Assembly: GCA_024305745.1 (NCBI GenBank)
Contig: JAHRBS010000004.1
Span: forward strand, 3,844,001 to 3,908,000
Origin: Polyporus tsugae
Lineage: Eukaryota > Basidiomycota > Agaricomycetes > Polyporales > Polyporaceae
Length of the DNA: 64,000 bases
Direction of reading: 5' to 3'
Shown here: piece by piece, positions 19,157 through 45,062 of the stretch
Numbering within the stretch: the first letter of the stretch is position 1
How the letters are laid out: the number at the start of each line of letters is the position of its first letter
The notes under the pieces: model-generated
Seen by the model: only the letters and a program-made list of their open reading frames with translations
The model's database searches: none
Told to the model about the DNA's origin: nothing
Position numbers and translations under genes: made by a program

Positions 19157-22100
19157 TCATGTGAGGTCAATGACATCCTTCTCATCGTAGGTTGTCTTCC
19201 TCCGCTTCGCCGGCGGGCCAGTGTCAAGTCTCGAGGATGCTGGAAGCGCGGCAAGTGAGGACGGGCCTTCGCCCTGTGCTTGCGCACTCCGTTGTTTCCA
19301 GTTCCCATGAATTGTACCAGCCGTAGACAGTTGTTTGGATTGGTTGGAGGATGCCGCAATCGCCGCTACGACATTGTGGCTACCGAGTGGTTGTGGGGCC
19401 ACGGCCGCGCTGAGGCCGCCAGAAGGGACACTAGAAAAGGCAGCGAACTTGGTGGCCCCGGCTGGACCGCGATCTTGGAGAAGAGCAGAAATCTCTGCAT
19501 GTTTTGGTCCCAATGTGGCTTGGATCTCAGCAGGATCGGCGCTAACGGACTTGAGCATGTCGAGGCCTTGCTTCTGGTGTTCGACCCATCGCGCTGGCGC
19601 AACGATTGCTGGCAGCTTCGTGACCTGTGCGAACGTTGAAGAGATCAGCGTCGAAACTGCCACATACCACCGAATACTCATACCTTCAGTCCCTGAGGAG
19701 TGGTGCGAATGGTGCTGTACGTCACGACTGGGCGTGCGTGCGACTGGAGGAACTTCTCGACGTGTCCTCTCTTTATCGCTCCAATGCGTTGCCATTCTTT
19801 ACTTTCTGCTGCTTCAGACGTCAAGAATTTGCGGACAGCGGGACACACGTCGCACGAGCACTGCCAGTTGCGGATCGCCTCGAGATGCTTAGACGCTGGG
19901 TTAGGTGGACGCGGTCCAAGCACCTTCTCTGCCCAGTAGAGCATGATGGTCCGGAATGCAGAAGCGAAGACCGTGGACGTCAACGGCTGCTTGTGCTTAA
20001 GCAGAAGCCCACGAATGTCGGGCAAGAGTGGTGCAAGCTGAGTCTTGATGTACGCGACGTCGAGCACGGATGGATTGAGGAGTCGGTCAAGAATGTTGGC
20101 GCATGCTTCCGGGAGGCCGACCTTCAAGCAGAAATCCAGAGCGTCGACAACAGGTTTGGCCCGGTTCGCAGAAGAAGTACCATAGGCATGGTACGTAGGA
20201 AGTGCATGAGTCGTCAAGGAAGTGGTGTCAATCCAATTCTTAAGCAGGCGCAGAAGAACAGAGTCGAGGTCTGTTCCGGCAGGATCGATGACGGCACGCT
20301 TCGTGTGAAGGCCTTCCACTATTTCCCGGAGTTGTGTATCCATGAGATTCAACGCTTCAAGCTTCGGAATGATCCTGCACACCTATATCAATAAATAATC
20401 ATCACGTTAAACATGTTCCAACCCACCAAGTGAGAACCAAGTCAGGTTGACCACCCTCCACGGCGACCTGGACGAGAGACGAGACGTCTGCTTGGGTAAG
20501 GCTCCGTGGATTCGTCGCGAAGCTTCGTAAAGAAAGCGACACCGCCTCCTCACAAAGCTTCCCCAACTCAGGGACCGGTCGAGTCTGACTCCCTGGTCGT
20601 GGACGAGCGAGCTCCCCAACGTATGCTACAAGTGGTAAGAGCACATGCTTGACACGTCGATACACAAGATCTTCCGCTAGGTCATCAAGGGCGAGCAACT
20701 TCTGCACTGCGATAGGGAAAAGTTCTGCGCAATCGAGGACGATGCACGCCTTGAGGTACGGCCTCGCCTTCTCGAGCTGTTGAGATTCGTCGGAAGGTTC
20801 CCGTCGGTATGTGGCCCGGTGGTTTGATAGTCGTTTGCGTCGGATAGCTGGATAGAAGTCCAACTTGGAAAGGCAGTCCCGGAGGATGTCTTTGGCCATG
20901 CAAGCGCGTGATTCGGCCGGAATGCCACCCTCACCGTATAGAGTCACAGCGTAGCTGAGTAGGAGGACGCAGTTCGAACACTGCTTGACAAGTGGAAAGA
21001 TGCTGCAAAAGAGGGGTCTGAAATTATGTACCGAATCGTCAGGAGAACGATTGCACTTACGTCTGTTCGAGGAACTCGACTCCCCTATACTTGAGTACCG
21101 TCGTCAAGAGCACGTCCGGCTTGTCGTGCGCGACGGACTTTACGTCGTCAAGTCGGTTTTCCCTCACTATCTCAAACCACGACGCAGTGAGTGCCGTCAA
21201 CTCTGCCGAACCTTGGCTTGCCACCCACTCCTCGAAGCGGTGCAAGAACGTCAACACGCGAGTGTTAGAGGGGTCCCTCTCTATGGCGCGCTCCAGACTG
21301 AAAACAACGGTGAGTAGACGTCTGGCGTATAGCAATAGTATGGCTTACCAAGGCTGCATCTCGTCAAATCCAAACGTGGCAACCGCACGCAGAATATTGT
21401 CGGCTTGGAGAGTGCCGATCGACTTCTCCGCATCGCACGCTCTTACCCCCCTAAACCACAAGGAGAAATCCTTCCATGTTAAGGCCACGCGGCAAACGCT
21501 CGAGACTACGTCCTTTGCTCGGGAGGCATTTGACCGTGCCAGGACGATGTTCGCAAGCTCCGCTTCTTCCTCGGTTGGGTCCTGGCTTGTGGAGGCACTG
21601 AGTTGTGCGCACGCGAACGCGAAAGCCTTGGAGCCGTGAATGAGATCGAAGTGCGCCGATTCAGGCCAGATCACAAGGACCGTTCGGCGATAGACTAGAG
21701 AAAAAGCCGACTCAGTAATGGTCCATCCAAGATGAGCAAACAACGTTTTCTCACAGCGCTCTAGGGACCCTGCTTCCTGCGCGTGAGATCATCAATTCAT
21801 TTATCAGTACAAACTGGCTACTGTACTCACATTTCCCGTGTATCCTTCATACTCCTGTTCGTCGTGGCCGCCAGAAATGATCTCCTTGACGAACCCGTCG
21901 GGAATGACCTCCTCCAGCTTGTATTCCAGGGAGCCTTGGATCCAGTCCCCGTCCAAGTCAACCAGATTTTCGATATCAACCACTTCCGATACCAGATCCG
22001 TCATCTCGACATCCGAGTCTTCCGGTTCAGAATCGTAACCGTACCGACGCCTGCGACGACCATATCCTCCAGATTCCATACCATATCCCCTCTGCGTAAA

Positions 22101-23482
22101 GTTGAGATTGGCCAAGCCCAAGCAGAACCCAAGCGGAGTCGCGACGTTCTCTAGGAGTGCGATCAGGCGTGCATCCGGCCCTTTGAAAGCACTACCGCTC
22201 AGATTCGCCTCGGAGTACTTGTGATCGAGCAGTCGGATGATCTTCTTTGGGGTCTCCTCTTTGCCTTCGACCTCCTTCCAGGAGAGCAGGATATGTCGGA
22301 GCTCGGAGGAGATACTGCATTCGCGGACGGCCGGCCGGAGAGAGCTCGTCGTGTGGATGAGGTTGAAGGAAAGGGCCAGGCGATAGCCGCTCGTTACCTG
22401 CTTCACGGCGTGCTCGACATCGGTGTACCATGCTAACACGGTGGTCTCGTTCAGGCTGTTCGTGCAGTGCTTGTAGACTTTCGACATATCGCCATGCGAG
22501 ACGCAGACGGCGCCGCCAGTGAACCTCGACGGTAAGACGACGACTATGGTTGCAAACATCCCATCGGCCTTTTCTGTACTGTAGGGTGGTATTGAGCTAT
22601 AGCGCCTCGGCACGAAAAGAACCACCTACTCGACATGAGAAAGGAAACTACACTAAGATATCAGTATGCACATTTGCCAGAAAGAAGCCCATAAACGTAC
22701 TGGGATCCGGCCTCGTATAAAAGCAATTTGTATAAGTCACAGCGTGGGTGGCTAGCTTCAAAGTTTACGCCGAGTACTTGACAGACATCGCGTACAATGT
22801 CATCTAGGAATGACTGCCACGCTGGATTCTCAAACTGGACCTGATTTTTGGGGGCCGATAACTAGTAAGCCATCCACAAACAACCACGATATCGTTTAAA
22901 CGTACTCGTTTTCGATCGATTTCCCATGTGTCGCGAACAGACTTATCCACCAAGGTTCGGTCGGCCATACCGAAGGGAGCTTGGTCCGAGGAGAACTTGA
23001 TCGCAGCTGCATCTCTTGGGCTCAAGGGGAGACCGATGGTGCCGAGGTCGTCAATGTTCAGAGATGGATTGGGGGCCGTAGAGTAGGCGCGATGGAAGGA
23101 GAACTCGCCGGTGAACTCTAGGTCGTCTTCCAAAAGCGTCGCGAGATCATCCTAATCCACGTACAGACTCGCATGGGTACAAGGCAGTGTCGCACATTTA
23201 TCCACTTACTCGTATGTTCCCTGAGGCCGGGATCCGTGCAATCTCTTTGTCGTCCTCCGACGCATCGTCCGACACCTCATTCACCCCATTCTTGGAAACT
23301 ATCTCATTTGTCGAGCCAGGACTGGAAAGATCGCCAACATGTGTGGAAGCGTTGGTGGGCAAGGTCTCCTGCTCTTCTTTCGCGGACAAAGCTGTGGAAT
23401 CTTCGAGGACACTATGCCGCTCACTGTTGGTGGGACCTACGATGGGGTCACGATAAGCGCGCCGAGTACCGTAAGAGCACAT
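19157..23482 (-). CDS. Paralogue A: 2OG-Fe(II) dioxygenase domain fused to a long helical region with terminal NLS and SIM-like motif
   Basis: Exons run from about 23482 to the stop at 19157, roughly 1100 aa. After an acidic N-terminus, the catalytic domain reads DLYKLLLYEAGSHFLSHVDT (spliced; HxD at 22630-22637), MFATIVVVLPSRFTGGAV and AWYTDVEHAVKQVTSGYRLA. This supplies the Fe(II) ligands H, D and distal H and the 2-oxoglutarate-binding Arg of prolyl-4-hydroxylase-like dioxygenases. An acidic segment follows (DSEPEDSDVEMTD), then about 700 residues of mostly helical sequence unknown to me. That region includes a Cys-containing CAELFPIAVQKLL and the motif CSCDVCPAVRKFL. The C-terminus is PPAKRRKTTYDEKDVIDLT: a basic nuclear-localisation-like cluster and an acidic, hydrophobic VIDLT resembling a SUMO-interaction motif. 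Substrate unknown; a nuclear, SUMO-connected hydroxylase is inference. The start is uncertain and may lie upstream of 23482. I saw no break. Confidence 0.75.
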
Positions 23483-24144
23483 AGCTCAGCAGGCGCACCA
23501 TCACCGCCGTCTATGTTGCCTTCAGCGGAGGCTTCGCGGACTTGGACGCTTGATACAGCTGTCTGAGAAGGCTGGTGTTTCCGATTCGAACCCAATTACT
23601 TAGTCGGGACGTTGCTTCCGGGTAATGTTCACAACTCACCGCCGAAAGGTCGGTCCCGAAGGGCGCGACAGGGGTCGTCATTCCTTAAACATGTCCGTCG
23701 CGTCGTGCGATGCAGCGTCAGATGGGGGAGAGCAAAAGGACAAACAACCGCCCCGGGCAGCGACACCGTGACCACCGCGGCTTCCGGTAACGTCACGTGA
23801 TCGCGCTCTGGAGAAACTGGTTCAAGGCAGCTTCGCCGACTTTCGACGTCTCGACGTCCATGTATTCGGACTCGCGAGACTGGCAGAAGAAAGACGCCGG
23901 GAGAAAAGTCATCACAATTGACACCTAGGGGCCTAGGACCAAGCTGAATATGTAAACAGGGTGTCAAATGCGCAAGTCATATACAGTACTCAAGCGGAGA
24001 TACTACGAGAACCTATCATAAGCAACACTACAGCAGCAAATACGTATAGTACAAACAATAAGGCTTCATCTTACATATGGTAGAGAAGTCTTACTGATAA
24101 GTGCCAATGATAAGGTATGATAGGGCACGGGAAACCGTGGCGTG
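23483..24144. other. Spacer between paralogues A and B
   Basis: About 660 bp. The left end may include an extra N-terminal exon of paralogue A (23490-23570 is open on the minus strand). Otherwise I see no gene. A cacgtga E-box-like hexamer lies at about 23794. Confidence 0.35.
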
Positions 24145-27100
24145 TCAAGTGAGATCAATAACGTCCTTCTCGTCATATGCAGTCTTTCTACGCTTGGCCG
24201 GAGGCGCCGCAGCATTCGAGGAGCCTGCCGTCGCGCTTGTTGATGCCGGGATGCTTCCGGATGCGGAAGTTGTGGGATGCGATTCTGCGACGCCCGGTGC
24301 GGAGCTGTGTGGCCATTTGTTCGCGTTCGATACCGAGGCCGCCGTTGTAGCGGCACCTAGCGGAGAGTTGTATACACCTGCCCGTGAAGGACCCGCAAGT
24401 GGCTGCGGGGCTGCGGCTTGAGCTGGGATGGCACTAGCCATAGTCGCATTGCTAGGACCAGCTGGGGCTGGGGTATGCGTGAACAGACGTCCGAGCAGCA
24501 GTGCCGAGATCTTCGCATGGTCAGGACCAAGCACTGTCTTGACCACCGCAGGATCAGCACTGATGCTCTTGAGCATATCTAGGCCCTTCTTCTGATGCTC
24601 CACCCACCGCGTGGGGCCGATAAGGTCTTTCGACTTCGTGACCTTCGCGCCGTGTCATTAGCTCCCCGCACCAATGTGCGATACTTTCAGCGCCACGTAC
24701 CGTCAATCCTTGAGGTGTGGTGCGGATCAGAGTGTAAGTCGCCAACGAACGGGCGTGCAAGTTGAGGAACTGTTCAACGTGGCGCCGCTTCGGGGCCCCG
24801 ATCCTCCCCCACTCTCTGCGCTCATTTGCCTCTGACGTCAGGAACTTGCGGACAGCGGGGCAGACGTCGCAAGTACACGTCCATCTGCTGAGGGCTTGCA
24901 GATGCTTGCTCGCTGTATCGGGAGGACGAGGACCAAGAACCTTCTCCGCGAAGTAGAGCATGATCGTGCGGAACAGCAGTGCAAACGTAGGGGAGGAAAG
25001 CGGCAGCTTCTGTCTCACGAGGAGGGTGCTGAGATCAGGAAGGAGGGGCGCAAGCTGGTTCTTGATGTATTCCGCATCCAGTTTGGCAGGGTGAAGGAGG
25101 CGCTTCGTGACAATGACGCATACCTTGGGGAGAGCGAGAGTAAGACAGTATTTGAGGACCGGGATGGCGGGCTTGGTGGATTGGCCGCCGTAATAAGACG
25201 ATGGGCTGTAGGCCGTCAAGTTCACAATAGAGACCCATTTCTTGAGAAGACGGAAGAGGACGGGGTGAACCTTGGTGCCCGATGGATCAGGAAGAGCGCG
25301 TTTCGCGTGCAACTCGTCCATGATGGCACGGAGCTGCGTGTCTTGAAGGTTTAATGCTTCGAGCTTTGGAACGATCCTGGTAATGGAAGACGAAATATGT
25401 TCATAATGGTCACCCCACTGTGACAGACGAACATACCCAGTCAGGAAGAAATCAGGCTGCCCGCACGTCGTGGTGGCCTGTATCATCCCCGCTACACCAG
25501 TCCGTGATATATTCAGAGGATTAGCGAGGGTAGCCTTGAGGTGCAAGGCAAGAGCCTTTTCAGCCAAGTCGCTCAAACCGGCCACAGGACGGGAGCGAGC
25601 AGCCGCCAACACACGTGCGATGAGTGGCAGAATAACTTCCTTCACACGAAGCTGTATCACGTTCTCCTGGAGACCATCGAAAGCGAGTAGTTTCGGGACA
25701 GCCAACGCGAACAGGTCTTCACAGTTGACATCCAGGCATGCTTGTGCATACTCTTGGGCCCGCTTGAGCTCTTCGGGTTCTTCGCTCGGCCGGTAGTAAA
25801 CAGAAGGCGCTACGGGCTGCTGAACCTTGTAGAAGTCCACTATGGACATCGCGACGCTGAGGACATCTTTTGCCATCCTTGTGCGGACCTCTGCAGGGAT
25901 GGTCTCAGCGTTATGAAGATCGACGGCCCAACCCTTCAAGGAGTGTGGATTCGGGTACTTCTTAACTAAGGGGAGAACACTGAAGTGTGTATGAGTATTG
26001 CATTGGTTATTCTAGAACCGACCGTAGGCTTCAAGCGGACCTACCTCCTCTCAAGGAATTCAACATCTTTGTGTTTGAGGACGAGAGCGATCAAGAGACC
26101 CGAGCTATCGTATGCTATCTCCTTCAGCTCGGAAAATCTCATCGTTCGCTGCGCCTCGATCCACGGTGATGCAATGATAGTCAATTCTTCGGACTGCTGA
26201 CGCTCGACCCAGTTTTCGAAGTTGTCAAGGAATTGAATCGCGCAGACATTTGAATTCTCTGCACAAACCGCGCGCTCCAAGCTGTGAAAGCACCAGAGGT
26301 TCAATTTCGCCTGCGGAGTAATGCAAGTAGTCTGACTCACGAAGACTGCACCTGCGCAAAACTGAAGGCGGTGATAATCCCATATATGTGATCATCCTTG
26401 AGGACCGCGACAGAGGCATGGCATGCCTGGACCACTCTGGACCACAGCACGACATCTCTCCACCGAAATGCCGCTTGACAGACACTGGAGACGACCTCAA
26501 CGCTACGACCCAATGATCGGGAGAGAATGATGTCCACAAGTTTGAGTTCTTCTTGCGTGGGGCGATTGCTAGTGGAACCGCGCACTTTTTTGCATGCGTA
26601 CTCCAAGCCTCGCCCTCCGTGAATGATGTCGAAATGAGTGGACGGAGGCCATATGAGGAGCACGGTCCTTCGATAGACTACCAGCACAATTAGCATAGGA
26701 GACGGTGAGCCAAATCCATTGAAAGGCGTACAGCGCTCCAAAGATCCAGCATACTATGACAGAGAAAGAGTAAGCGTAGTTGCATTGAAGCAAAAGTACA
26801 GAAACAAGGCTCATGTTGCCCATGTATCCTTCATAGGATTGGTCATCGTACTGGCCGGATGTGATCTCCTCTGCAACCTCTTTGGGTATGACTTCCGCCT
26901 CCAGATCGTAGCTGATCGTCTCGCGGATAAGTGTGCCATCCAAGTCGACTAGGTGTTTGATGTCAACATCCGTCTCCTCGACCTCGTCCATGTCAATGTC
27001 TTCATTGTCTTCATCATCTTCATCTTCATCGTCATCATAATAGCAACCACCCCATCCGCCACGTCGTCATCTTTCGTATCGACCATAGCTGCAGCCGGAG

Positions 27101-28011
27101 TCCGCTGCGGAACCACGCTGAGTGCAGGTGAGGTTCGCCAAAACGAGATGAAAACCGAGAGCTCGCCCGGCATTATCTAGCATCGCGACTAGATGTGCGT
27201 CAGAGCCCTTGAGTGCACTGCCGTTCATGTTCGCCTGCGAGTACTTGTGGTCGAGCAAATAGATAATCTTGTCTGGTGCATCGTAGTCATTCTTCGCCCA
27301 GGACGCGAGGACTCGACAAAGTCGAACAGCGGCGTCACTAGCCTTCAAAACGACCGGGCAGAGAGAGCTTGTCGTATGGATGACGTTGAAGGAGAGAGCG
27401 AGCCGATATCCACTGGTGATAGGTTTCACCTCATGCTCGACGTCAGTATACCATGCCAGAATGGTCGTGTCGGTTTGACTGCGAGCACTGTGTTTGTAGG
27501 TCTCCACGAAACCGTTATGGGGGACGTGGACCGCGCCTCCAGTGAACTTGGACGGGAGCACGACCACAATTGTTGCGAACATACTGTCCACTTTCTCAGT
27601 GCTGCGATCCTTCAGCAATGGTGCCGCGGCAAGAAGCGAGGGAGCACTTACTCAACATGGGGAAGAAAGCTACATTCAGATTGTTGGTACGCTGTGCAAT
27701 GAAAAGGAAATTGCCCCGATAAACTCTAAACCGCCTTCTAGGATGTCACCAAGCTCTTCCTGAGGGTTGGTGCACTGAGTAAAAGAGGATGGTTAGACAA
27801 TACTGCCATGACTCACGTGGACGTGAATCTCTTCCTCCTCTTCCTCTTCCTCTTCCTCTTCATCGGCATCTTCCTCCTCCTCGTCATCTTCTTCATTATG
27901 GTTATCCGGGTTCTTGCCATCGCTCACAACCTCACCATGGTCATCAACCTCGCGTCCTTCCACTGCAACCCCAGTGGCAGCGCCTTGAACGAAGTCAGTC
28001 CTGAACGCTGA
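24145..28011 (-). pseudogene. Paralogue B: disrupted copy of the dioxygenase-helical-SIM gene
   Basis: Closely follows paralogue A along its length: FLPHVDTEK (HxD at 27652-27659, split by an intron as in A), MFATIVVVLPSKFTGGAV, AWYTDVEHEVKPITSGYRLA, the helical region with CLDVNCEDLFALAVPKLL and CTCDVCPAVRKFL, and the same tail KRRKTAYDEKDVIDLT ending at 24145. Two lesions stand out. First, the 110 or so residues that in A lie between the EFTGEFSF segment and the HVD exon are missing; B jumps from EFIGAISFSLH to that exon across only about 20 bp (27671-27695), and the direct reading hits a stop. Second, an in-frame TGA (27067-27069) separates the dioxygenase part from the acidic and helical part, in an otherwise continuous frame. 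An unusual intron could hide the TGA, but the deletion would remain. The acidic N-terminus (27830-27900) is also expanded. Confidence 0.7.
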
Positions 28012-28646
28012 TATACACTGTCATCACGCGGATGACAAATTGCAAGACTGACTGTTGCCTTCCGGAGCGTTGGGTAAAGTAGGTGTTTGTGGGTTCATAT
28101 AGTTTGGTGTGAAGTTGTCTGGCGGACCTGTTGCCTGGGTAGGTGTGGCTGCTGCCGGTTCGCTCTGGCGTATCAAAGTCAACGAGTGATTCAGGGATTG
28201 CGCTCATGACACGCACCATCATAATATGAGCAGATTCGTGCAGGTCGCGAAAATAGCAGAGAGTAGGGAGCAAAAGTGGTGGGAAAGGAAGAGGAGGCCA
28301 GTTCTTCGCGACCTCAGACGCGTTGTCATAGGCACGTGATCGCGACCCACAAACGCCCATGACCCCAGCCACCGCCAGTGGTCGCTCTCAGTGTCTGCAG
28401 GGCAGCCATTGAGTATGATATTACTTTCTTACCAGTGCCCTCAGACCATCTACACACTGCATGCTCATGGACCTATATATATTACCTGAAATCCGAATAT
28501 GGAGGGAACATCAAGCTGCGCCGCCCATCTCTAGACTGTAGGTACATATATCAACACAGTGTTGTGGCCGCACATCGTGTAGGCATGTGTAGGCATTAAG
28601 TACGTGAATTGGCCAAAAGTGGGCGAAACCACAGACTACACATCAC
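28012..28646. other. Spacer between paralogues B and C
   Basis: An open minus-strand stretch (28372-27995, with AIPESLVDFDTPERTGSS) may be a 5' exon or leader of paralogue B. Nothing else is supported. Confidence 0.3.
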
Positions 28647-30802
28647 TCATGTCAAGTCAATCACATCTCCAGATCCATCCGTCCCAACCATCTTCTGACA
28701 CTTCGGCGGTGGATGGGTCAAAGAAACGCCCGCCGTCTTGGAGTCCGTCGGACACTTCTTCATCGTGGTCGTCGTAGTCTTCCTGGAAGGACCAGCCACC
28801 GCATTGACTTGTCCCAAGCTCACGATTGTTGCCTGAGACATAGCTAGTCTAGGGATGGCTGTGACAGCCTCAACTCCGAGCTGTGCCGCAACCATCGCAT
28901 ACTCTGGGCTGAGCATGGCTCGGAGATCTTGGGCATCCGTGCTGATAGCGTCGAGCAACTTCCGCCCTTCTGCCTGGTTCTTCATCCATTGAATAGGTTT
29001 GATGAGCAGCTGCAACTTGGTGACCTATAGAACAAGGGGGGGCGTATGCTCAACCAGCTATCATGCCACAATCATCGAAGAAAACATACCACAAATCCTT
29101 AAGGCATCGAGTTGTCCACGAACCACGTCGCCATGCCCGACGCATGCTTCTTGAGGAACTTCTCAATATGCTGGTGATTCGATGAACTGATGTTCGGGAA
29201 CGTACTGGTCCCTTTGGGAGACTGGGTCAACCACCGACGGATGGAGGGGCAGTGCTGGCATGTGCACTTCCACTTCTCCAATGCGCTGATGGGAGCGAGA
29301 GCAAGGTTTGTGTTGAACGGCCGCGATCCCATCACTTCTCCGACCCAGCTGAAGAGCAGCGAGCGAAGAGGATCCGCGATTGCGTCGGTGGTAACCGGCA
29401 CGTCGTGCTGCTTGAGCAGAGGACTCAGCTTCTCCAACAGCGGGAGGACATTGGATTCCAGGAAACCACTATCGGGACCATCGGATTTGGCCAAGAACCG
29501 CTTCAGCACCTCAGTGGACGCATCTAGGACTCCAGCTTCGAGACAGAACTTGAGAGCGTCGAATGCAGCCTGCACTCGGAGCCTCTCATTGTTGACGTGC
29601 CTCCAGTTTGGGTTCGGCAGGGGGAATTCAACGATTGTGACGTACTTCTTCGCAAGTCGAGCCATGAGTATCTTCATCAGTCCTTTGGTAAGACCGATGG
29701 TTTCGCTTTTGGCGTGGCATCCGTTCAGTAGGGCTTTGAGAGTGTGTGAAGACATCTGCAATGCCTCGAGTTGGGGGAGAAGTCTAATCCCCAGAAAAGA
29801 TGAGCACATCAGAAGCGGGAGAAGGCGGTCGCACTTACTGAGATTCGATCAGTCCTGCATGGCCGATGGCTTCCAGAGCTCCACAAAAAGAGATGATGTC
29901 GCCGGAGGCAACGTAATGAGGCGAGGCAACAACGACCTTCAGGTAAGATGATGTGGCCCACTTCGCAAAAGCGGCTAAGTCGGGGAAGGTCTTGTCCGCT
30001 GACCATGAACGGGCAGCATCTCCGAGGAGTGAAAGAATCGGTAACACGGTCTGGACGCCATACTCCTTGTGTCCTGATTGCATGAGGCGATCGAGGACTT
30101 TCGGCAGGAGGCCTTCACATCCAGAACAGAGACATGTCTCTATAAAAGAGGTGGCCACCTCCCTGGGTGTACAATATACGCGGGAACCGACATTGTCGAA
30201 GTCAATCTCGGCCACTGCCAACTCTAAAAGATCTCGTGCCATGCGAGTCCGAGCAGCTACAGGTATGGATGTTTGGTCATACAGGGACTTGGCGAACTTG
30301 GGCAATGCGGAACGGTTACAGCGTGACTTCACTTGAGGCAATACCCTAAAAGTGTGGATCTCAGTCCCTTGAAGTGGAATATGGACTAAACACGGCAATA
30401 CTTCTTTTCGAAGAAATCTGGGTCGTTGTGCTTGAGGGTGAGTTCTATGAACAGCCTGTGGTCACCTTCGCTTGGCCTGTTCAGGACCTTCAGGTCATCA
30501 AGCCGATGAGTTCGTCGAGCGGAAATCCACTCATCGATGGGCTTCGCGATCTCGCTTGCCACGGTGTCCGTAATCCAGGATTCAAAGTGATCCAGGAAGG
30601 TCAGGACCGCAACATCCAATAGGTCTGCCTTGAGGGCAGTATCAATCCTGAGAACGACCATGCTCAGCGATTAGGCTTAACGACGCCGGTTGAAAGTGGG
30701 CACTGACCAAGGCTCAATCGCGTTGAAACCAAGCATCTGAATAGCTGTGTGGATGCTCCCTTCTACTAATGATGAGGACAAAATGCGGTGCACAAGTGTA
30801 GC
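28647..30802 (-). CDS. Paralogue C: helical region plus terminal SIM-like motif, no dioxygenase domain
   Basis: Homology to A and B begins at the exon starting at 30802 (HRILSSSLVEG...GFNAIEPW), the point that in A follows the dioxygenase and acidic segments. It continues through TFLDHFESW, SGCEGLLPKVLDRLM, LLPQLEALQMSSHTLKALL and CTCQHCPSIRRWL to a terminal tail ending GDVIDLT at 28647. Four or more exons join without internal stops. Conservation is clearly lower than between A and B. The basic cluster before the tail is weakened (PPPKCQK in place of PPAKRRK), yet the last six residues are identical. No dioxygenase motif occurs between 30802 and the LTR at 31357. The start codon is unresolved; a further exon near 30.85-30.9 kb (ARSWFRDHKL) is possible. 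It could be a functional shortened paralogue or a 5'-truncated remnant. Confidence 0.6.
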
Positions 30803-31356
30803 CTATGTGTTAACATGAGGTATGCGAGAAAGGGAGCTAGTTGGAGATTCCAGTTTGTGATCCCGAAACCATGAACGTGCAAGGTCAAGGTCAAGACAAT
30901 GCTGGCAACCGTTCAACCCCAGTCAAAACCCACTCGAGAACACCCGAGATCTGTGGAGAAACGAAATGATCGGAGTTGTTATCGCCAGTTCTCGTAGTTT
31001 TCGGTGAAAATGAAATAACACAGGGGTCTCCAGGAGAACGTGCGAGAAGTGTCATCATCTTGACTTTCATCTCAATGAGACCCCACTGGTGTCTGCCAAT
31101 GATGGCTGTCTGTTCCTTGCCCCGCTCACGTGTTCCGTCGAGAGTCATGGAAAACTGTCAGAATACTACACGCACAGGCTTAGATTCCCCTAGGACTAGT
31201 TTGCGCCAAATAGACACTCTGTACACGATACACCTACCACACTACTACTATGCGGAACCCAGTGGCCTAATTGCGCACCACGGTCGAGCACCCTCTCTCA
31301 CGCGGTGTTCTTCACCTGCCCCTCCTTGGCCTCCTCCTTGCGCTGTCAAAGGTACT
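30803..31356. other. Left flank of the retrotransposon
   Basis: About 550 bp between paralogue C and the 5' LTR. There is no dioxygenase-like coding sequence on the minus strand. It probably contains the promoter or first exon of paralogue C. A cactactacta string near 31230 looks superficially like a CACTA terminus, but no partner was found. Confidence 0.35.
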
Positions 31357-31802
31357 TGTCATGAACGTTCCATTCGGCGCCTGCTACCAGCGCCTTAGTT
31401 TCCTTTTTTGGACGATCTACTTCTCACATTGTACTTATTGTTCTCCGTTGCATTGTATCTCGTCCTTTGTTCCTCAGCACAATAGCTCCTTATTGTCCGT
31501 CGTCACTATTGTTCCGTTTCCATTGTTCACCCGTGTCCATAGTTACCTATTGTCCCCAGGTTCTCATTGTCCTCTATATATATATATAAGGACCTGTACT
31601 TCGCTGCCTGGAGACCTCAGTTTCGACCTCTTGTCCCCAGGTAAGCCTCACTGTATTTCCCTTGTTAGTTACCTCACTCAATACATCTTGTCTCCAGCCC
31701 TGACCGTCGAGCCTTGCTCCGCTCTCGCTGCACAAGTGCTTGTCGGCGCTCCTGCTCGTCTTGTACGTATCCCTGATCCTTACTCAACGTCCAGTCGTAA
31801 CA
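31357..31802 (+). repeat. 5' LTR
   Basis: 446 bp, starting tgtcatgaacgttcc and ending cgtaaca. Aligns along its full length with 37388-37831 with about 20 differences plus one 2-bp indel in the TA run. Most differences are CG against TG or CA. Confidence 0.95.
31575..31588 (+). promoter_or_regulatory. LTR TATA box
   Basis: An uninterrupted (TA)7 run followed by aagg inside the 5' LTR, in the position expected for the U3 promoter TATA box. The 3' LTR has (TA)6 at 37605-37616. Confidence 0.6.
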
Positions 31803-32754
31803 TTAGGTCAAAACTTCTCCACGAGCACCAGCGCACCTTTCCCCCAGGAGTTTACACACGTTTATCATTCCCCTTTCCCCTCGTACGGTACGCACTCAGA
31901 TCCTCTGTGTTGGCCTAGTGTAGTGCGCGCTCTAGTCACACCATCGGACATGGTCTTGATTCAACTTGAGGCTTGCCACTTTTAGTGGTACAGTGCGCGG
32001 AAAGCTCCTAACCCGAGACCCCGGCACTGACAGAAGTGGTCCGCCTCACGGCATGGGAGGCTAGAGAAAGGCGGCGAAACAAAGCCAAGGCAGGACACCC
32101 CTGGGCTCGTGTCCCTCGTGGTTAAGACACAGCAATAGGCCGAGGAGGCTGAGCAGACAGTGTTGGATTGTGCACCTGCCATCTCTGTTCCTTGGATAGG
32201 AAGCAAGTTCCAACAACCTGGCGAGCTGCAGTACATACGGGCACGTCTTCCACGTCATCGCGGTCAAAGACCAGCATTGACACGAGTTCGACTCACGGTG
32301 GTACATCTGTGAACAACAACCCTGCCCCAACCAGTCGAACACCTTTGACTGGGACGAGGAAAGCTGGTCTCAGTATCCCAGTTTTGTCGCAACCGGCCCA
32401 GAGCAGAACGATCTCATCACCCAGTCACGACCCAGAATCCCCACCAACCGCCTCCCACAAGCAGCCTCTGCTGCTGCAATCAGCCAACCAGGCACACGTC
32501 CCCCTAGCCGTGCTCCTAGTCGTATCCCCACTTCCAGCGGATCACCCTCGTTGGGATCCATTCCACTTGGCCAAGCACTTACGTTAGCCAGTGACCGTAT
32601 TGCATGACAAACATCCAACCCCCCACCCACACCCTCTCCAGCAGGGACCCCTCCACAACAATCCGTTGTTCTTAACACCCTGAGTAGCCCCTCACCTGTG
32701 CCAGGTCCCTCACCCGTGCCAAGTCCCTCTCCACCCTCATCACCCGCTTCCATC

Positions 32755-33591
32755 ATGGCCACGCCCATCCCCTTTGATGTTTCCAAACTCCTCTCTCAAA
32801 TTGCCCCTCGCAAGTACGATGGAAAACTCGCGCAGGAAGGGCTTCGCTTTGTAGCTAATGCCCGCATCTACTACGATCTTCTTGAGGCGCAAGGAGTCGC
32901 GCACGAGATCCGCTGGATCACGATCCTCAACAAGTTGACCAGTGGCACTGCTGAGTGGGCCGGTCCATACATCGTCATGGTGGCCAGTGGCAATGTTGCG
33001 TGGTCGGACTTTGCGGCCTTTGAAGGGTCATTCAAGGCACACTTCTGCGCTGCGAACGACGAGGAAGCGGCCGTCGCAGAACTCACCAAACTCTGCAAGG
33101 CTTCGCATCGGCTTGGCACCATCAAGGACTATACCAGTCAGTTCAATGCCATCGCTGCTCGCACCAGGTTCGGTGACGCGGACAAGCGCGAATGGTACTG
33201 CACGGCACTCCCTTACAAGATCAAGGACACCTTTGCGACCACAGCGCACAACATCTTGGACCTTGCCAAGATCCAGAAAGTCGCGCTGCAGATGGACCAG
33301 CAACTTGCCGCGCGCAAGGAGGAACGGCCGAAGCAATTTGGATGGAAGAAGAAGGGCGAAAAGGCAGCCGCCTCCGGTTCGGGCAAGAAGAAGTTCGACG
33401 GAGAGTGCTGGAACTGCGGCAAGAAAGGACATCCTGCGTTCCACTGCCCAAAGCCCAAGGTCGAGGGCCAACGGGCTGCCTCTTCTTCCTCATCCAGTAC
33501 TGACGAGCTCACGACACTCAAGGCCCAGCTCAAGGCAATGGAGGAGAAGATCACCACCCTTACGGTGGTCGATAAGAAAGAGGGTTTTTGA
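32755..33591 (+). CDS. gag: Retrotransposon Gag polyprotein
   Basis: Starts at the ATG of MATPIPFDVSKLLSQ (278 aa); the frame is open upstream to about 32698 without another ATG. The Gag core includes WITILNKLTSGTAEWAGPYI and a run ending FKAHFCAANDEEAA, matching Ty3/gypsy Gag. A single CCHC zinc knuckle, CWNCGKKGHPAFHC, follows a Lys-rich stretch and serves RNA packaging. The C-terminus is a short coiled coil (LKAQLKAMEEKITTL). Gag ends at the TGA in 33589-33591, within a run of five Ts, and pol continues in the -1 frame, consistent with -1 frameshift expression. Gag itself has no internal stop. Confidence 0.9.
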   Translation: MATPIPFDVSKLLSQIAPRKYDGKLAQEGLRFVANARIYYDLLEAQGVAHEIRWITILNKLTSGTAEWAGPYIVMVASGNVAWSDFAAFEGSFKAHFCAANDEEAAVAELTKLCKASHRLGTIKDYTSQFNAIAARTRFGDADKREWYCTALPYKIKDTFATTAHNILDLAKIQKVALQMDQQLAARKEERPKQFGWKKKGEKAAASGSGKKKFDGECWNCGKKGHPAFHCPKPKVEGQRAASSSSSSTDELTTLKAQLKAMEEKITTLTVVDKKEGF

Positions 33592-36500
33592 TTAGAACCG
33601 CATTGGACGCTGCGCGTGCTGGTTCTTGTAGTAATAGTCGATTTTCTGTACTGGGTTCGTTGTTTGTATATGAAGTAAATCACGATGGTCAACACTTTCA
33701 TATACTGGTACGGTTAATCGGCAAGCAGCAACATAAGGACATTGTAGCTATGGTAGATAGCGGTGCTACTACTAAGTTCCTACATAGACAATTCGTAGAA
33801 CAGAATAGGGTTACGACGAGGAAGTTGGCAAGGCCAATTCCTCTGTACAACATCGACGGTTTGGAAAACCGTGATGGTACAATCACAGAGGTTGCCATGT
33901 TGGATATGGCAATCGGAGACCACAGGGAGAAGGTGGTCTTTGTAGTGACGGATATAGGAGAAGAGGATGTCATCATCGGCCTGGACTGGCTACGCGAGCA
34001 CAACTCTGAAGTAGACTGGGAACGTGGCTCGCTGCGCCTTTCGAGATGTCCAGAGACATGCCCGGCTAACCAGAGAACCTCTGAACCTGTTGAGACCAAA
34101 GCGCGTGATACGGAGGTACGGCTTACGGCGCGCCGCGGTCCTTGACGGGCAAAGAAGGTTAGGAAGGTTGGAAGGGTGTGTGCGGCTGTGATGACTGAGG
34201 AGAAGGAGGAGGATAGGCCCTGGCCGCCAGGATTCCTGCCACGGTGGGATGGAACTGAGACGTCTCTTCTCAATGCATGGGAGGATGGACAACGCCTTTA
34301 TGGTGCTCCGCAACTGTTTGCTTCAGCGACATACACATACTCGCAACAACTCGCTGAGCAAGAGTACCAGAAGAAGGTAGTCCGCCCCGTCGAAGAAATC
34401 GTACCCGAGCACTATCACGAATACTTGCATGTGTTCTCGAAAGAGGCGTCCGAATGTTTGCCAGAACACGGACCCTATGACCATGCGATAGAGCTCGTGC
34501 CCGATGCAAAGATGTTCCATTCCCGTGTATACCCCCTATCGCCCAGCGAACAAGGAGAGCTTGACAAGTTTCTCGCTGAGAACTTGGCCAAAGGCTATAT
34601 TCAAGAGTCGAAGTTGCTGATGTCATCGCCGTTCTTCTTTGTCAAAAAGAAGGATGGTAGCCTACGTCCAGTCCAGGACTATCGGCGACTCAACGAGATC
34701 ACCATTAAGAACCGTTACCCACTACCGTTGGTATCGGATCTGATGGATCGACTCAAGAAGGCCAAGTACTTCACAAAGCTCGATATTCGCTGGGGGTACA
34801 ACAATGTGCGGGTTAAGGCCGGCGATGAATGGAAGGCTGCCTTCGTGACCAATTGAGGGCTGTTTGAGCTAAATGTTATGTTCTTTGGGCTAGCCAATTC
34901 GCCCAGCACATTCTCTGCGCTCATGAACGACATCTTCAAGGACCTCATCATACTCGGCAAAGTCACTATCTACCTCGACGACATCCTCATATTCACTGAC
35001 AGTCTTGAGGAACACCGCACATTGGTGCGCGAGGTCCTGAAACGTCTTAAGGAGAACGATCTGTTCTGCAAGCCAGAGAAGTGCGAGTTCGAACAGCCTA
35101 AGGTGGAATACCTCGGTGTACTCGTCTCGGAGAACTGCGTAGAGATGGATCCGGTGAAGGTGAAGGGTATCGCGGATTGGCCTGTCCCTCAGAACGCCAC
35201 AGACGTACGGAAGTTCCGCGGTTTCGCAAACTTCTATTGGCGGTTCATAAAGGACTTTAGTGCCATCTGCAAACCCTTGGATCGCCTCATGGGCAATGTG
35301 CCATGGCAATGGGGAGACGAAGAGCAGTCTGCCTTTGACGAGCTCAAGTGTTGCTTCACCAAAAGCCCTGTCCTGACGATCTATGATCCAGACCACAACA
35401 CCCGCATCGAAGTCAACGCATCTAGCTTCGCTACGGGCGCGGTTCTGTCTCAGGAGGGGGAAGACGGCAAATGGCACCCCATCGCTTTTCACTCCGAGTC
35501 GATGAACGACGCTGAATGCAACTACGAGATCTATGACAAGGAGATGCTCGCCATCATTCATGCCCTGCAGGCCTGGTGTCACTATCTCGAGGGTCTCCCC
35601 AGTGTGTTCGAAATCCAGTCGGACCACAAGAACCTCAAGTATTAGCGCACAGCACAGAACCTCACACGCAGGCAGGCACGATGGGCTCTCTATCTGTCAC
35701 GATTCGACTTTGTCATCTCGCACAAGCCTGGGACGTCTAATGGTAGGGCCGATGCACTGTCGAGACGGCCCGACCACCAGCACGAGGATGCAGATGACAA
35801 TCTCAGTCGAGTCTTGTTGCAGCCAGAACATTTCCGGGTACTGGCAGCCAAGAGAGGGCATCTATTGGTGATTCCAGAGAAGGCACTGCTTCGACGCATC
35901 CGCGAGTGCGGAGAGCGCGAGCAGGAGGTCGTGGAGGCACTCAGTAAACTGGACAAACTTGGACCAGCGCGTCTTCAGAATGACCTGGTGGACTGGAACA
36001 GTGAGCAAGGCTTGCTACTGTACCGAGGCAAAGTCTATGTCCCCAAGGACAACGCGCTGCGTGCTGAGATTGTACGCATCCACTACGACCTCCCGCCCGC
36101 TGGACACCCTGGGCAGTCGAAGACGTTGGAGTTGGTCATGCGAAACTACTGGTGGCCGGGCATGGCAAAGTTCATTAAGGATTACGTTGAGACCTGCGAC
36201 ACCTGTCGCCGCGGCAAGGGTTCGCATGCCAAACCACACGGTCCTCTTCAACCAAACGAAATCCCTAATGGCCTGGGCCAGATTGTGACGTGCGACTTCA
36301 TCACTGGACTCCCAGAGGTGGATGGATACAACGCGCTTCAGCTCATCGCTGATCGGCATGGAAAGATGATACATCTTATTCCTTGCACCGAGGAGATCAA
36401 CGCAGAAGGAGCTGCTGACAACTTCATCCGAGAACATTTTTGTCTTCATGGGCTGCCACGGAAGATCATCTCTGATCGTGGGCCCCAGTTCTCAAGCAAG

Positions 36501-37355
36501 CTCTTCCGCGCCGTACTCAAGGGACTCGGCATAGAAAGCGCAATGTCCACAGCCTACCACCCGCAGACAGATGGGCAATCGGAACAATGGAACCAGGAGA
36601 TAGAGGCGTACCTTCGTATGTTCTGCTCACGGCGCCGTGATGACTGGGTCAAGTGGCTGCCAATTGCAGAGTTCGCCTTTAACTCGCACCAGCACTCGTC
36701 AACGGGTTACTCGCTGTTTTACCTCATGTACGGCTACGAACCCCAGTTCCACATTCCAATGTTGCCTACGGCGGTGCCTGCAGCTGATGAACGCCGGGAG
36801 GAGTTGCAACAGGCGTGAGAGGATGCAACCGCGGCCTTGACTCTAGCAGCTGAGCGGATGAAGGAGTACTATGATTGGTATGTCCGTGACGCTCCAGAGT
36901 TCAAGGAAGGCCAGAAGGTGTGGCTCGACACGAGGAACTTCCGCGTTCCTGGAGTCTCTCGGAAACTGGTGGATCGATATGCTGGCCCGTATCCGGTTGT
37001 ACGCAAGGTGGGCAATCTGGCTTACGAGCTCAGACTCCCCAAGGACCTTGTAATCCACTCTGTATTCCACGTTTCTCTCCTGCTTCCGCACAAGGAGAGT
37101 CGACTCTCCGGTCGTCACCTGGCAGAGCCAGCGGCAATTGAGGTGGAGGGGGAGGAAGAGTACGAAGTGGAGGAAGTGTTGGAGTCGCGGCGGTATGGGC
37201 GGTGGAAGAAACTGCAGTACCTGGTACACTGGAAGGGTTGGGGCCCTGAACACGACAGCTGGGAGGATGCAGTGGACCTTACAAATGCGCCACAACTCAT
37301 GCAGAAATTCCATTCAACACATGCAGAGGCGCCTGGTCCTCTCAAGAGGACTTAG
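33588..37355 (+). pseudogene. pol: Retrotransposon Pol polyprotein (PR-RT-RH-INT-chromodomain) with four in-frame stops
   Basis: One frame covers all domains. Protease: VDSGATTKF. Reverse transcriptase: KLDIRWGYNNVRV and YLDDIL, the active-site aspartates. RNase H: IEVNASSFATGAVLSQ. Integrase: the HHCC zinc domain around 36080-36210, then TCDFITGLP, SDRGPQFSS and AYHPQTDGQSEQWNQ with the D,D,E triad. C-terminal chromodomain: LVHWKGWGPEHDSWED. Breaks are TGA at 34143-34145, TGA at 34854-34856, TAG at 35643-35645 and TGA at 36816-36818. By comparison with the family, several look like CGA-to-TGA changes. The first RNase H aspartate reads Asn (35415-35417). Chromodomains direct such elements to heterochromatin by binding methylated histone H3 (family knowledge). 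Confidence 0.9.
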
Positions 37356-37373
37356 TCGTGAAGGCATGACCCT

Positions 37374-37386
37374 TAGGAGGGGGGTA
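37374..37386 (+). other. Polypurine tract of the retrotransposon
   Basis: The purine run taggaggggggta ends directly before the 3' LTR, the expected plus-strand primer site for reverse transcription. Confidence 0.6.
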
Positions 37387-37387
37387 T

Positions 37388-37831
37388 TGTCATGAACGTT
37401 CCATTCGGCGCCTGCTACCAGCACCTTAATTTCCTTTTTCAGATGATCTACTTCTCATGTTGTACTTATTGTTCTCCGTTGCATTGTATCTCGTCCTTTG
37501 TTCCTCAGCACAATAGCTCCTTATTGTCCGTCGTCACTATTGTTCCGTTTCCATTGTTCACCCATGTCCATAGTTACCTATTGTCCCCGGGTTCTCATTG
37601 TCCTCTATATATATATAAGGACCTGTACTTTGCTGCCTGGAGACCTCAGTTTCGACCTCTTGTCCCCAGGTACGCCTCGCTGTATTTCCCTCGTTAGTTA
37701 CCTCACTCAATACATCTTGTCTCCAGCCCTGACCGTTGAGCCTTGCTCCGCTCTCGCTGCACCAGTGCTTGTTGGTGCTCCTGCTCGTCTTGTATGTATC
37801 CATGATCCTTACTCGACGTCCAGTCATAACA
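37388..37831 (+). repeat. 3' LTR
   Basis: 444 bp, starting tgtcatgaacgttcc and ending cataaca. Homologous to the 5' LTR along its whole length. Confidence 0.95.
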
Positions 37832-37882
37832 GCGCACAACTAGGATATCCTCAAGGTCACCAGCACTCCTAGGACGAGGCTC

Positions 37883-40731
37883 TCAGGGATGAAGCAGTAT
37901 GAATCCATCGCCGAGGTCGCGTTTTGGGGCCTGCGAAGGACGAATGGGGTCGAGTTCAGGAAACATGACTTTGAGAACATTGTTCTGCGCACGACGTAAT
38001 GCATGCTGAGCGAGGTTCTCAAAGGGGAGTGATGCCTGCCTGAGCTCTGAAGTAAGGTCCCCAATCATGCGCTCCATCGTAAATTGTGATGTGCCAATGA
38101 GGGGGCCGATATGGGTAGTCTGCGTGGGCATATGGGACAAGGAGTGCAAGCATTGTGGGGCAAAATGCATGTGTGAGATCTTCCGCTGGATATAGAGGGT
38201 CTCGTAATCGAAGATGAAGTTGGATAGGAGAGTGTGTGAACATTCGCGTTGGGTGGCGCACGATTTGCGCTGATACACGATATGAGCTCCTGCGACGAAC
38301 TTGCAGAAGTTTGACCAGTACTTGTCAGGGAGAACACGGTAGAGAAAACCGGGGGCGAGACCGTAGATCCATGTCAGAAACTCCCAGCACTTGTAACCAC
38401 TGGAGATCTTCTCTGCAGGGTTACGAGGGGGCCGATCGAAAGACCCGGAAAGGTAGTGTCTCGCAGCGGCCACCTTTGCTCCATGCTCGGCCCAGGTCGC
38501 GGGATCACGGAGGCACGCCCAGTCCCAACTCCGCCGATCATCGCCATTCTTTGTGTCGCAATCAATTGTCCCCCGCCAGAGACTCACAAGGAGATCTATG
38601 AGGTTGAGACTGAATAGATGCATGATATCACCGGGAAAGATGGTCGGGATGGGCGCGGTGTGTTTGGGATCCAATCCCCAGAAGATGCTGGGCTTGACAA
38701 GACCGGTCTTGAGACGACGAGCCCTATAGTTATTCTGTGTGGTCGCCCGGCGAAGATCGAGAAGGTCTTGGATGTAGTCCTCGGGAGAGGAATCGGGCAC
38801 ATCGGAGGGCTCGCTGTTAGGAACAGACCAGCCGCTGAACCAGCTACGCCAAAAGGGTGCAATGTCAAGCTTGGCTTGACACTTGGCTGGTACTATATAT
38901 GTAGTTCGTAATGCATTCATGACACTCGCAGTCATCGTGATCACAACCACGTTCGGAGTACCCATCCGGTTTCAAGCATACCGAGTAGTAGTGTGACCCC
39001 GCAGGCTTGCAACGACCTGGACGTTTGCAGCGATGCCGGCACCCATGCTTTCCATGATGAGCAACATAGCCTGTCATGTCGGTGCTACCAACATGGTCAG
39101 CTTCACCAAGCATCAGATAGATATATGCACGGAAAGGGGGGCGGGTAGGGTGCGAGTAGGGTCCGATGCATCCCAGACCATGAAGCCCTCATGTTGGAGA
39201 GCGGTGATGTGTTGGAAACCAGGGTAGAGGAATGATTCGATGCACTTCAGTTTGTTCGGGCCTGGCACAATTGCACCTGGGAGGATGTACTTCTTCTTGT
39301 ACCACTTGTCCGGCGCGATGTCGACAAGCACCCAGATATAGATCCAACAGTTTGAGGCCTTGTGTTCAAACAACTGCGCGCCATCCATCGAGAAGATGAC
39401 GCACACATCGTCCTTCCCAATGCGACCCTTGCAGTATGCATCCCAGAAGTCTGAACCCTCGTAGACATCTCCAATGTCGTCAAGCTTGCCTGCACCCTTG
39501 ACCAACCTCTCAAGGATTTCCTCCATCCTGCGCTCCCGGTGTCGCATGTCGTGCGCGCCTTCTGGGGACCGGAAACGCGATTGAATTTGAGGCCCGAGAG
39601 GAAACGTGGCGAACTGGCGGAGAGGCGTCTTTGTCCCAGTCTTGTAGCAATCAAATGCGACGGTGGGGTCTTTGCAGAACAAGCATTTGCTGTCGTCCCC
39701 GAATGGACCTGTGTACGCCATGCAAGAGTCTGGACACATGTCATGCCATAGAGGTTTGACTCTGCTCAGATCCGCAATGACCTTTTGGAGGCCGTACAAT
39801 GAGGGGATCTCATCTTTTGGATGTCGCTCAAGGATGGCATCGCGGTGATTCACATAGATGTCGTCCGCTCCATTTGTACCCGTCAGATACAGTTTCAGGG
39901 CGAGTCGCTCATCTGGAGTGAGAACGGCCGGCTCGCGCAGAGGGTTCTGGAGACGAAAGAGGGTCTCGTCGTCCAATCGAGAGTCCTGAAGACGATGATT
40001 GGCCCACAGCGCGTTCACAAACTTTTGGGCGATGTCAATCTCGGAGATCCCAGTTGCAGGGAGCGGCTCACGATTGGATTGACTAGGTGGATTGTTTCGA
40101 CCGATATCGACAGGTGGCGGCCTTGGATGAGAGGACGGCAGCGGAGCGGCGGAAGGGGAATCCACTGGTCGAGGTGAGCCTGAGGTATGTCCCATGGAGG
40201 GCACCTCCGCATCCAGTGCTCCGTCTGGACCCTGGAAATTGAGAACAGAACCACGATTGTCCTATGGATGAACAAAATATGTGTTAGTCCTGTAATTTCC
40301 GATGTTCGAGCATGGAAGACTATGGGAAGCATGCTTACCTGAATCTCCGATGAAGACTCCGCTGCAGGGGCCTCTGTATGCGGCTCAGACGTGCGCACAC
40401 GTCTGCGGGGAGGGCTCTCATCATCGCGTCTCAACGCTAAACATGGCGACGGATCCTCATTTGGCTGCTCTCCTCGATTCCTCTTCTTCCCGGTCTTGCT
40501 TGGTTGTGCATATGATGGATGCGGAGGACGGGAAATACGGCGTGCAATCCCTTGCTCTCGCACCTCCTCGTGCCAGATCCAGGTGCCTTTTGAGACGAAA
40601 ACTTGACCCTTCCCTATGCAGCCCGGACATCCGCAAAACCACTTGTCTCCGGGCAGTTGCGGCAGGGGTGGAGCAGGAGAGAGTGGGCGCCATAGCTCTG
40701 AGGCAGGTCCCGTGGTGGGGGGCTCGGGCAT
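37883..40731 (-). pseudogene. Tnp2-type (CACTA/EnSpm-like) transposase, degenerate
   Basis: Starts MPEPPTTGP at 40731. An N-terminal Cys-rich motif, WFCGCPGCIGKGQVFVSKG, is followed by a disordered basic region, an intron (about 40340-40250) and a long transposase body. The body includes WHDMCPDSCMAYTGPF, CLFCKDPTVAFDCY, VCVIFSMDGAQLFEHKAS, YILPGAIVPGPNKLKCIESF, VAHHGKHGCRHRCKRPG and PDGYSERGCDHDD, the signature order of the Tnp2 family found in fungal and plant CACTA-like elements. Later come VKPSIFWGLDP and PGDIMHLFSLNLIDLL, then a long helical C-terminus. The frame breaks inside a six-base G run at 39134-39139, and again near 38900-38940 where neither frame nor an obvious intron joins the parts. 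The C-terminus stops early (LLHP then TGA), next to the retrotransposon. Terminal inverted repeats were not identified. Confidence 0.8.
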
Positions 40732-44784: not shown

Positions 44785-45062
44785 TCATATCGTAGACAGC
44801 GCACGTCGCTCTCTTGTTGTCTAAACCATGTATCTGTTATACATTGTGCACGGGCCACTTTCTCTGACGTCATACAATCTCGCGAGGGGGGCGCTGGGCG
44901 TTGAATGGAGGAGGGCAACGGCTTCTGAGAAACCAGATTTGGGACAAACGCCTCTCAGTGTTCGCGCGCTAAAGCAATGGCGGCCCAACTCGACACCGCT
45001 GAGCTCGGCCCTCCTTCCCATCTCCTCCCAGCCCACCCTTGCCACCCTTGCCACACCCAGCC

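What the first reader, a model, noticed from the sequence alone, without database searches (positions are those of the whole stretch)
19157..30802. Tandem family of 2OG-Fe(II) dioxygenase proteins ending in an NLS-like cluster and a SUMO-interaction-like DVIDLT
Three neighbouring minus-strand genes share one architecture: a dioxygenase domain (A intact, B damaged, C absent), about 700 residues of unknown helical sequence, and the very last residues DVIDLT. In A and B this tail follows PPAKRRK. The tail is identical in all three although C has diverged strongly elsewhere, which suggests selection on it. VIDL-type cores next to acidic residues are established SUMO-interaction motifs. The combination suggests nuclear hydroxylases or demethylase-like enzymes recruited to SUMOylated targets. 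I know of no described system with this layout; the function is inference.
Basis: partly seen in the sequence, partly recalled or inferred. Interest (0 to 1): 0.8.

Follow-up and report, generated by a model that had tools for sequence, protein, structure and literature searches.

The report
Fungal oxygenases with a SUMO-binding-like tail
A family of iron- and 2-oxoglutarate-dependent oxygenases found in many fungi, built like prolyl hydroxylases with a helical scaffold, often ends in a short nuclear-import-like and SUMO-binding-like tail that the bacterial relatives examined lack, which suggests, but does not yet show, nuclear enzymes steered by the SUMO tag.

Summary
Minus-strand genes A, B and C encode the same DVIDLT end with different codons. 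Only A is intact: B has lost the N-terminal part of its 2OG domain and carries an in-frame TGA; C has lost the whole domain and carries a TAA. A fourth copy, D, 15 kb outside the window, has the 2OG domain and the tail, with the helical part deleted in frame.

The tail is not local. With a generous motif it occurs in 42 of 53 Basidiomycota and 26 of 61 Ascomycota rows that keep the C-terminal module (0.4 and 0.9 expected from shuffles in near-identical sets), and in 0 of 6 named bacterial relatives. It usually follows a K/R cluster in a predicted disordered end; its core equals the SUMO-binding VIDLT of PIAS1. Predicted structures of two relatives show a P4H/PHD2-like oxygenase, a helical repeat-like region and a small module; only the fungal one continues into the tail.

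Best reading: a Dikarya-wide nuclear protein oxygenase guided by SUMO. Nuclear location, SUMO binding and substrate are inferred. Extra clues: 3 of 328 relatives start with a histone H3 tail mimic, and 6 of 80 bacterial loci have a TOTE primase-helicase in their flanks.

The parts
19157..23681 (-). Gene A, intact. Modelled exons 23482-23210, 23151-22906, 22840-22701, 22647-22630, 22578-21831, 21776-21349, 21297-21061, 21002-20427, 20380-19684, 19624-19157; the start may instead be the ATG at 23681, where the match to the annotated relative P0001 begins
   Evidence: spliced model; P0001 of G. leucocontextum matches exon by exon, 94-96% in its three best exons, and its residue 1 falls at 23681
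22362..22729 (-). A: 2OG-Fe(II) oxygenase core (HxD, H, R), split by two introns
   Evidence: Pfam PF13640 match to residues 211-298 of the model, converted to window coordinates by hand
19157..19216 (-). A: tail PPAKRRKTTYDEKDVIDLT and stop
24145..27951 (-). Gene B, decayed: acidic N-terminal remnant 27951-27700, then the N-terminal part of the 2OG domain is missing, then 27669-24145
   Evidence: tblastn with P0003; model
27067..27069 (-). B: in-frame TGA inside the acidic loop
   Evidence: ORF 27067-27651
24145..24204 (-). B: tail PPAKRRKTAYDEKDVIDLT and stop
28647..30802 (-). Gene C, decayed: helical part, C-terminal module and tail only; no 2OG domain
   Evidence: tblastn with P0016 matches from residue 520 on; no convincing upstream remnant in 30701-45000
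29099..29101 (-). C: TAA stop before the last intron
   Evidence: ORF 29099-29848
28647..28667 (-). C: DVIDLT and stop

Best explanation
Gene A and its relatives are a Dikarya-wide family of nuclear protein oxygenases. An N-terminal Fe(II)/2-oxoglutarate domain of the prolyl-hydroxylase type hydroxylates a protein residue. A helical repeat-like region (alpha-solenoid-like) and a small C-terminal module hold substrate or partners. A disordered end carries a nuclear-import-like K/R cluster and a type-b SUMO-interacting motif (V-I-D-L-T) that brings the enzyme to SUMOylated proteins, probably chromatin-bound. Bacterial relatives share the folded part and stop before the tail, so the tail is the eukaryotic addition. 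Shown here by sequence or computation: domain order, catalytic residues present in A, conservation and placement of the tail, its absence in the bacterial relatives examined, decay of B and C. Inferred: nuclear import, SUMO binding, hydroxylase activity, protein substrate, chromatin as the site.
Against: No binding, location or activity data. 35 of 61 Ascomycota and 11 of 53 Basidiomycota rows lack the motif, and parsimony needs 16 changes among the fungi. P0016, the relative of C, ends GLWRCD as annotated, without the motif. Some motif-bearing members may be catalytically dead: P0112 has R where the first iron-binding H should be. D's first exon was not resolved and no protein named Ganoderma appears among the 120 listed, whose length filter leaves out long relatives. 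The terminal pattern is no commoner in the genome than its reversed control (8 against 9), and at least one reading frame that looks unrelated also ends in EVIDLT (L008).
Confidence: 0.58

Rival explanations
1. The terminal motif binds something other than SUMO (another ubiquitin-like protein, an import or degradation factor), and the K/R cluster alone explains nuclear location.
For: No SUMO-binding data. Ascomycete proteins keep a K/R cluster more often than the motif: 51 of 62 against 26 of 62.
Against: The core is identical to the PIAS1 SIM; at least one acidic residue lies within 6 residues upstream in 54 of 62 ends, and acidic or Ser residues often follow; variable residues after it argue against a C-degron or a PDZ ligand (inference).
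Confidence: 0.2
2. The motif serves SUMOylation of the enzyme itself or scaffolding in cis, and oxygenase activity is secondary in many members.
For: SIM proteins can use the motif for their own SUMOylation (recalled). P0112 keeps the tail but has R in place of the first iron-binding His.
Against: A, D and P0105 keep the HxD motif; H219 and D221 of P0002 lie in columns conserved in 90% or more of A1, a hand-picked set.
Confidence: 0.12
3. The oxygenase acts on nucleic acid or removes methyl groups from histones (TET/JBP-, AlkB- or JmjC-like).
For: The nuclear-type tail, the H3 mimics and the TOTE genes near some bacterial relatives fit a chromatin or DNA role.
Against: The 2OG enzymes among the listed fold matches are mainly protein prolyl hydroxylases, PiuC, Tpa1 and OGFOD1, with a few small-molecule enzymes such as SnoN; an unlisted family is not excluded.
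Confidence: 0.1
4. The tail looks conserved only because the copies duplicated recently or exchange sequence.
For: A, B and C are neighbours; B and C are decayed.
Against: 2-6 synonymous differences per pair and recurrence in many genera of two phyla.
Confidence: 0.03

Closest known systems
PHD2/EGLN HIF prolyl hydroxylases
   Different: 10-13% identity in the rows; no solenoid and no SIM tail in PHD2 (recalled); substrate of this family unknown
Bacterial prolyl 4-hydroxylase acting on EF-Tu (4iw3, Pseudomonas putida)
   Same: First-ranked match in all three structure comparisons
   Different: Chain of 201 residues; no helical region, no tail
Tpa1 / OGFOD1 / Ofd1 (ribosomal protein prolyl hydroxylases)
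   Different: Second half is another double-stranded beta-helix domain (recalled), not a helical region
S. pombe Ofd2 (PMC3175000; abstract and section 6 read)
   Same: A nuclear fungal 2OG dioxygenase that interacts with histones
   Different: AlkB subfamily; its relation to this family was not tested here
PIAS1 SIM (VIDLT)
   Same: Identical five-residue core (PMC4907222, PMC3901395; passages seen)
   Different: Not at the protein's end in PIAS1 (recalled); here mostly at or within a few residues of the end
Bacterial PF13640 proteins of about 730-865 residues (A3)
   Same: Same order of 2OG domain, helical region and C-terminal module
   Different: No SIM tail in the named ones examined

Membership tests
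2OG-Fe(II) oxygenase superfamily (PF13640) | HxD...H iron triad and R for 2OG | tested here: met
   A: HVDTEK, H and R in the model; PF13640 30.9 bits over the 27-bit cut-off; 26 of 30 members of A1 match
2OG-Fe(II) oxygenase superfamily (PF13640) | double-stranded beta-helix fold | tested here: met
2OG-Fe(II) oxygenase superfamily (PF13640) | Fe(II)- and 2OG-dependent turnover | not testable with these tools
   needs protein
Protein prolyl hydroxylases (PHD/P4H) | closest fold among solved 2OG oxygenases | tested here: inconclusive
Protein prolyl hydroxylases (PHD/P4H) | hydroxylation of a proline in a protein | not testable with these tools
   substrate unknown
SUMO-interacting motif, type b | hydrophobic core V/I-V/I-D-L with neighbouring acidic residues (consensus recalled) | tested here: met
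   DVIDLT in A, B, C and D; at least one acidic residue within 6 upstream in 54 of 62 fungal ends
SUMO-interacting motif, type b | lies in a disordered stretch | tested here: met
   pLDDT mostly under 50 from residue 1079 to 1148 of P0034
SUMO-interacting motif, type b | binds SUMO | not testable with these tools
   needs a binding assay
Classical monopartite NLS | K-K/R-x-K/R cluster that drives import (pattern recalled) | tested here: inconclusive
   PAKRRK in A and B; C's variant PPPKCQK is weaker; import not tested
JmjC, AlkB, TET/JBP oxygenases | fold closest to those families | tested here: inconclusive
   None among the 50 rows shown; not listed does not mean excluded

The most novel reading that the evidence does not exclude
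A bacterial-type conflict-associated protein oxygenase was taken up by the ancestor of Dikarya, gained an NLS-SIM tail (and in a few lineages a histone H3 tail mimic), and now hydroxylates SUMOylated chromatin proteins, possibly as part of oxygen-sensitive silencing of foreign DNA.
Probability: 0.17. Interest if true: 0.88.

Novelty: new variant of a known kind. Interest (0 to 1): 0.62.

Why it matters
If right, SUMO would steer a prolyl-hydroxylase-like enzyme by a motif built into the enzyme itself, in a family present in many mushroom and mould genomes and annotated, in the hits seen here, mainly as hypothetical or by its 2OG domain. It would link oxygen and iron supply to SUMO-marked nuclear proteins in fungi and give a concrete protein, a concrete motif to mutate and a natural minimal version (copy D) for the test.

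Tried and rejected
Demethylase or nucleic-acid oxygenase reading: the 2OG enzymes in the fold lists are mainly prolyl-hydroxylase-type; JmjC, AlkB and TET are not among the rows shown, which does not exclude them. Recent duplication as the cause of tail identity: rejected on synonymous changes and other species. Solved relatives by sequence: none of value (one match at E 0.84). Remains of C's missing 2OG domain beyond 30802: nothing convincing up to 45000. Bacterial neighbourhoods: 92 of the 138 neighbour ORFs listed, from 35 of the 80 loci, were scanned; mixed content with some restriction-modification, Septu-like and TOTE genes, no baseline run. Distant 2OG-like matches elsewhere in the genome (10 of the 13 matches: eight on contig C7, two on C2): nine loci were translated; no tail was seen in the frames printed, but gene ends were not modelled and no Pfam test was run on them. 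A search for SUMO itself by PF11976 gave 16 matches; three of the weaker ones were translated and looked ubiquitin-like, and SUMO was not singled out. Literature: no paper on this family or layout found (open-licence PMC only; listings, except the passages, abstract and section named in the report). The helical region was not folded or searched alone.

Biases to know: alignment A1 (30 of the 92 proteins) was picked after the tails had been seen, so its conservation figures (VIDLT block 0.86, 2OG 0.72, helical region 0.38, linker 0.23) favour the motif; searches are the fairer counts. Phylum labels were assigned by hand from source names. 'Keeps the C-terminal module' means a profile match to within 75 of the profile's 172 positions from its end. 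In one search, 16 rows were dropped for lacking the module or for an end shorter than 20 or longer than 200 residues, the motif was the generous one, the method was FastTree, and bacterial rows were set to 'no' by hand. Ascomycete sampling follows one query, a Sordariomycete by recalled taxonomy, so that class is over-represented. Each protein search scored only about 8000 candidates; one search listed 120 of 246 hits and one search listed 120 of 124.

Full report
What is in the window. The window is part of a 43.2-Mb fungal genome, G000:C1:3844001-3908000. Gene A is closest, among the hits, to Ganoderma leucocontextum P0001, 94-96% identical in its three best exons. Three minus-strand genes carry an end that reads DVIDLT: A, B and C. 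The motif is encoded by different codons in each. The degenerate pattern was found 3 times, and 0 of 100 shuffles reached that.

State of the copies. A has ten modelled exons and an intact 2OG-Fe(II) domain (PF13640 30.9 bits against a cut-off of 27). B lacks the N-terminal part of that domain and has a TGA in frame; C lacks the domain altogether and has a TAA before its last intron. Relatives of B (P0003, annotated as partial, 80-92% in its five main segments) and of C (P0016, 74-91%) in G. leucocontextum carry the 2OG domain. P0016 as annotated ends GLWRCD, without the motif. B and C are therefore best described as decaying paralogues.

A fourth copy outside the window. A genome-wide pattern for a terminal V-I-D-L-[S/T and a few others] end gave 8 matches, against 9 for the reversed control pattern, so the pattern as such is not enriched; four of the 8 are family members. 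The fourth, copy D (G000:C1:3827259-3828911, plus strand; L006:5760-7412), encodes the 2OG domain with its HxD motif and runs in frame from YRRTVLVMWPDPTAH to PQKKRRKTAYDERDVIDLT. The helical part is missing. Its first exon was not resolved.

Family and distribution. Three protein searches gave 92, 246 (120 listed) and 124 (120 listed) hits; 328 proteins were held. A profile of the C-terminal module reached near its end in 192 of the 328. Among these 192, the generous motif lies in the last 30 residues of 42 of 60 named basidiomycete and 26 of 62 named ascomycete proteins, 0 of 6 named bacterial ones, 0 of 48 unnamed ones with under 25 residues after the module and 5 of 16 unnamed ones with longer ends; shuffled ends give 0.38, 0.93, 0.01, 0.09 and 0.14. 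With the strict motif the two fungal counts are 40 and 20. Motif matches elsewhere in these proteins are few: 4 in 60 basidiomycete and 6 in 70 ascomycete proteins. On a FastTree tree of 132 rows rooted on 16 bacterial rows, the fungi are one side of a branch (support 99), the basidiomycete rows one side of a branch (100), and the motif needs at least 16 changes among fungi. Bearers occur in both phyla and in several ascomycete groups, so presence in the ancestor of Dikarya with repeated loss is the simplest reading; repeated gain is not excluded. A large ascomycete clade (Daldinia, Monosporascus, Cytospora and others) mostly lacks the motif, and many of its members keep a K/R cluster.

The tail behaves as a separate element. 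A linker of low conservation separates it from the folded part (on the biased alignment A1). What follows the motif varies: nothing, SP, SD, GE, ED, EDASD and others. Proteins without the helical part keep it: D, and Tulasnella P0105 and P0119, seen in full; P0108 and P0121 agree by length (521 and 534 residues) and end. Lentinus brumalis P0112 (579 residues) keeps the tail although its HxD motif reads RVD, so it may be a pseudoenzyme.

Mechanism, with its inferred steps. The enzyme would be imported through the K/R cluster (inferred), dock through V-I-D-L-T on SUMO carried by a nuclear protein (inferred; [quoted passage not shown] passages seen), and hydroxylate that protein or a neighbour (inferred from fold). 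The genome has one SP-RING (zf-MIZ) match of the kind found in SUMO E3 ligases (the link to SUMO is recalled); SUMO itself was not singled out.

Further clues. Three of the 328 proteins start with a histone H3 tail mimic: P0021 Dichomitus squalens (RTKQTARKSTGGKAPR), P0148 Tetrapyrgos nigripes (ARTKQSARKSSGG) and P0093 Trametes versicolor (ARTKQTARKS), with scores 89, 76 and 47 against at most 41 in 984 shuffles. P0021 and P0093 also end in DVIDLT. P0141 has TTKQTARKSTG near its end. The Ganoderma copies do not show it: in the window's genome an exact nucleotide pattern for T-K-Q-T-A-R/S gave four places, three that start like genuine H3 genes and one unrelated. Among 80 bacterial loci, a TOTE-type primase-helicase matched strongly in six flanks (L017, L029, L061, L067, L068, and a contig-edge piece in L051), plus a weak helicase match in L064; in L017 and L068 it lies immediately downstream and in L029 just upstream, on the same strand. 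No baseline was run.

Verdict. The finding is real and wider than reported: a prolyl-hydroxylase-like family with an added NLS-SIM-like tail across Dikarya. No description was found in the held papers. The functional claim rests on motifs and folds.

Noticed in passing
P0021, P0148, P0093 (N-termini); P0141 (near the C-terminus): Histone H3 tail mimics in members of this family from Dichomitus, Tetrapyrgos, Trametes and Abortiporus.
   Followed up: partly
L017, L029, L051, L061, L067, L068: A TOTE conflict-type primase-helicase lies in the flank of 6 of 80 bacterial homologue loci (a fragment in L051), in L017 and L068 directly downstream; no baseline.
   Followed up: partly
window 32608-33591 +: Gag-like ORF with weak Ty3 capsid and zinc-knuckle matches, all below the curated cut-offs, about 1.8 kb upstream of truncated gene C.
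   Followed up: no
G000:C7:48888-130741 and two places on C2: Ten distant matches to A's 2OG exon (E 1e-6 to 5e-4), eight of them near the start of contig C7; 5 of the 9 loci translated show an FFSDV(E/D)HEV motif; no terminal motif seen in the frames printed.
   Followed up: partly
L008, minus strand: A reading frame that looks unrelated to the family also ends in EVIDLT, after KKSKTVVKREASP.
   Followed up: no
P0064, P0288, P0091, P0092: Unnamed metagenome relatives that end in VVDLTAD, EVIDLT, DVIDLT and EIIDLT; P0064 and P0288 fall among ascomycetes on the tree, P0091 and P0092 may come from other eukaryotes (guess).
   Followed up: partly
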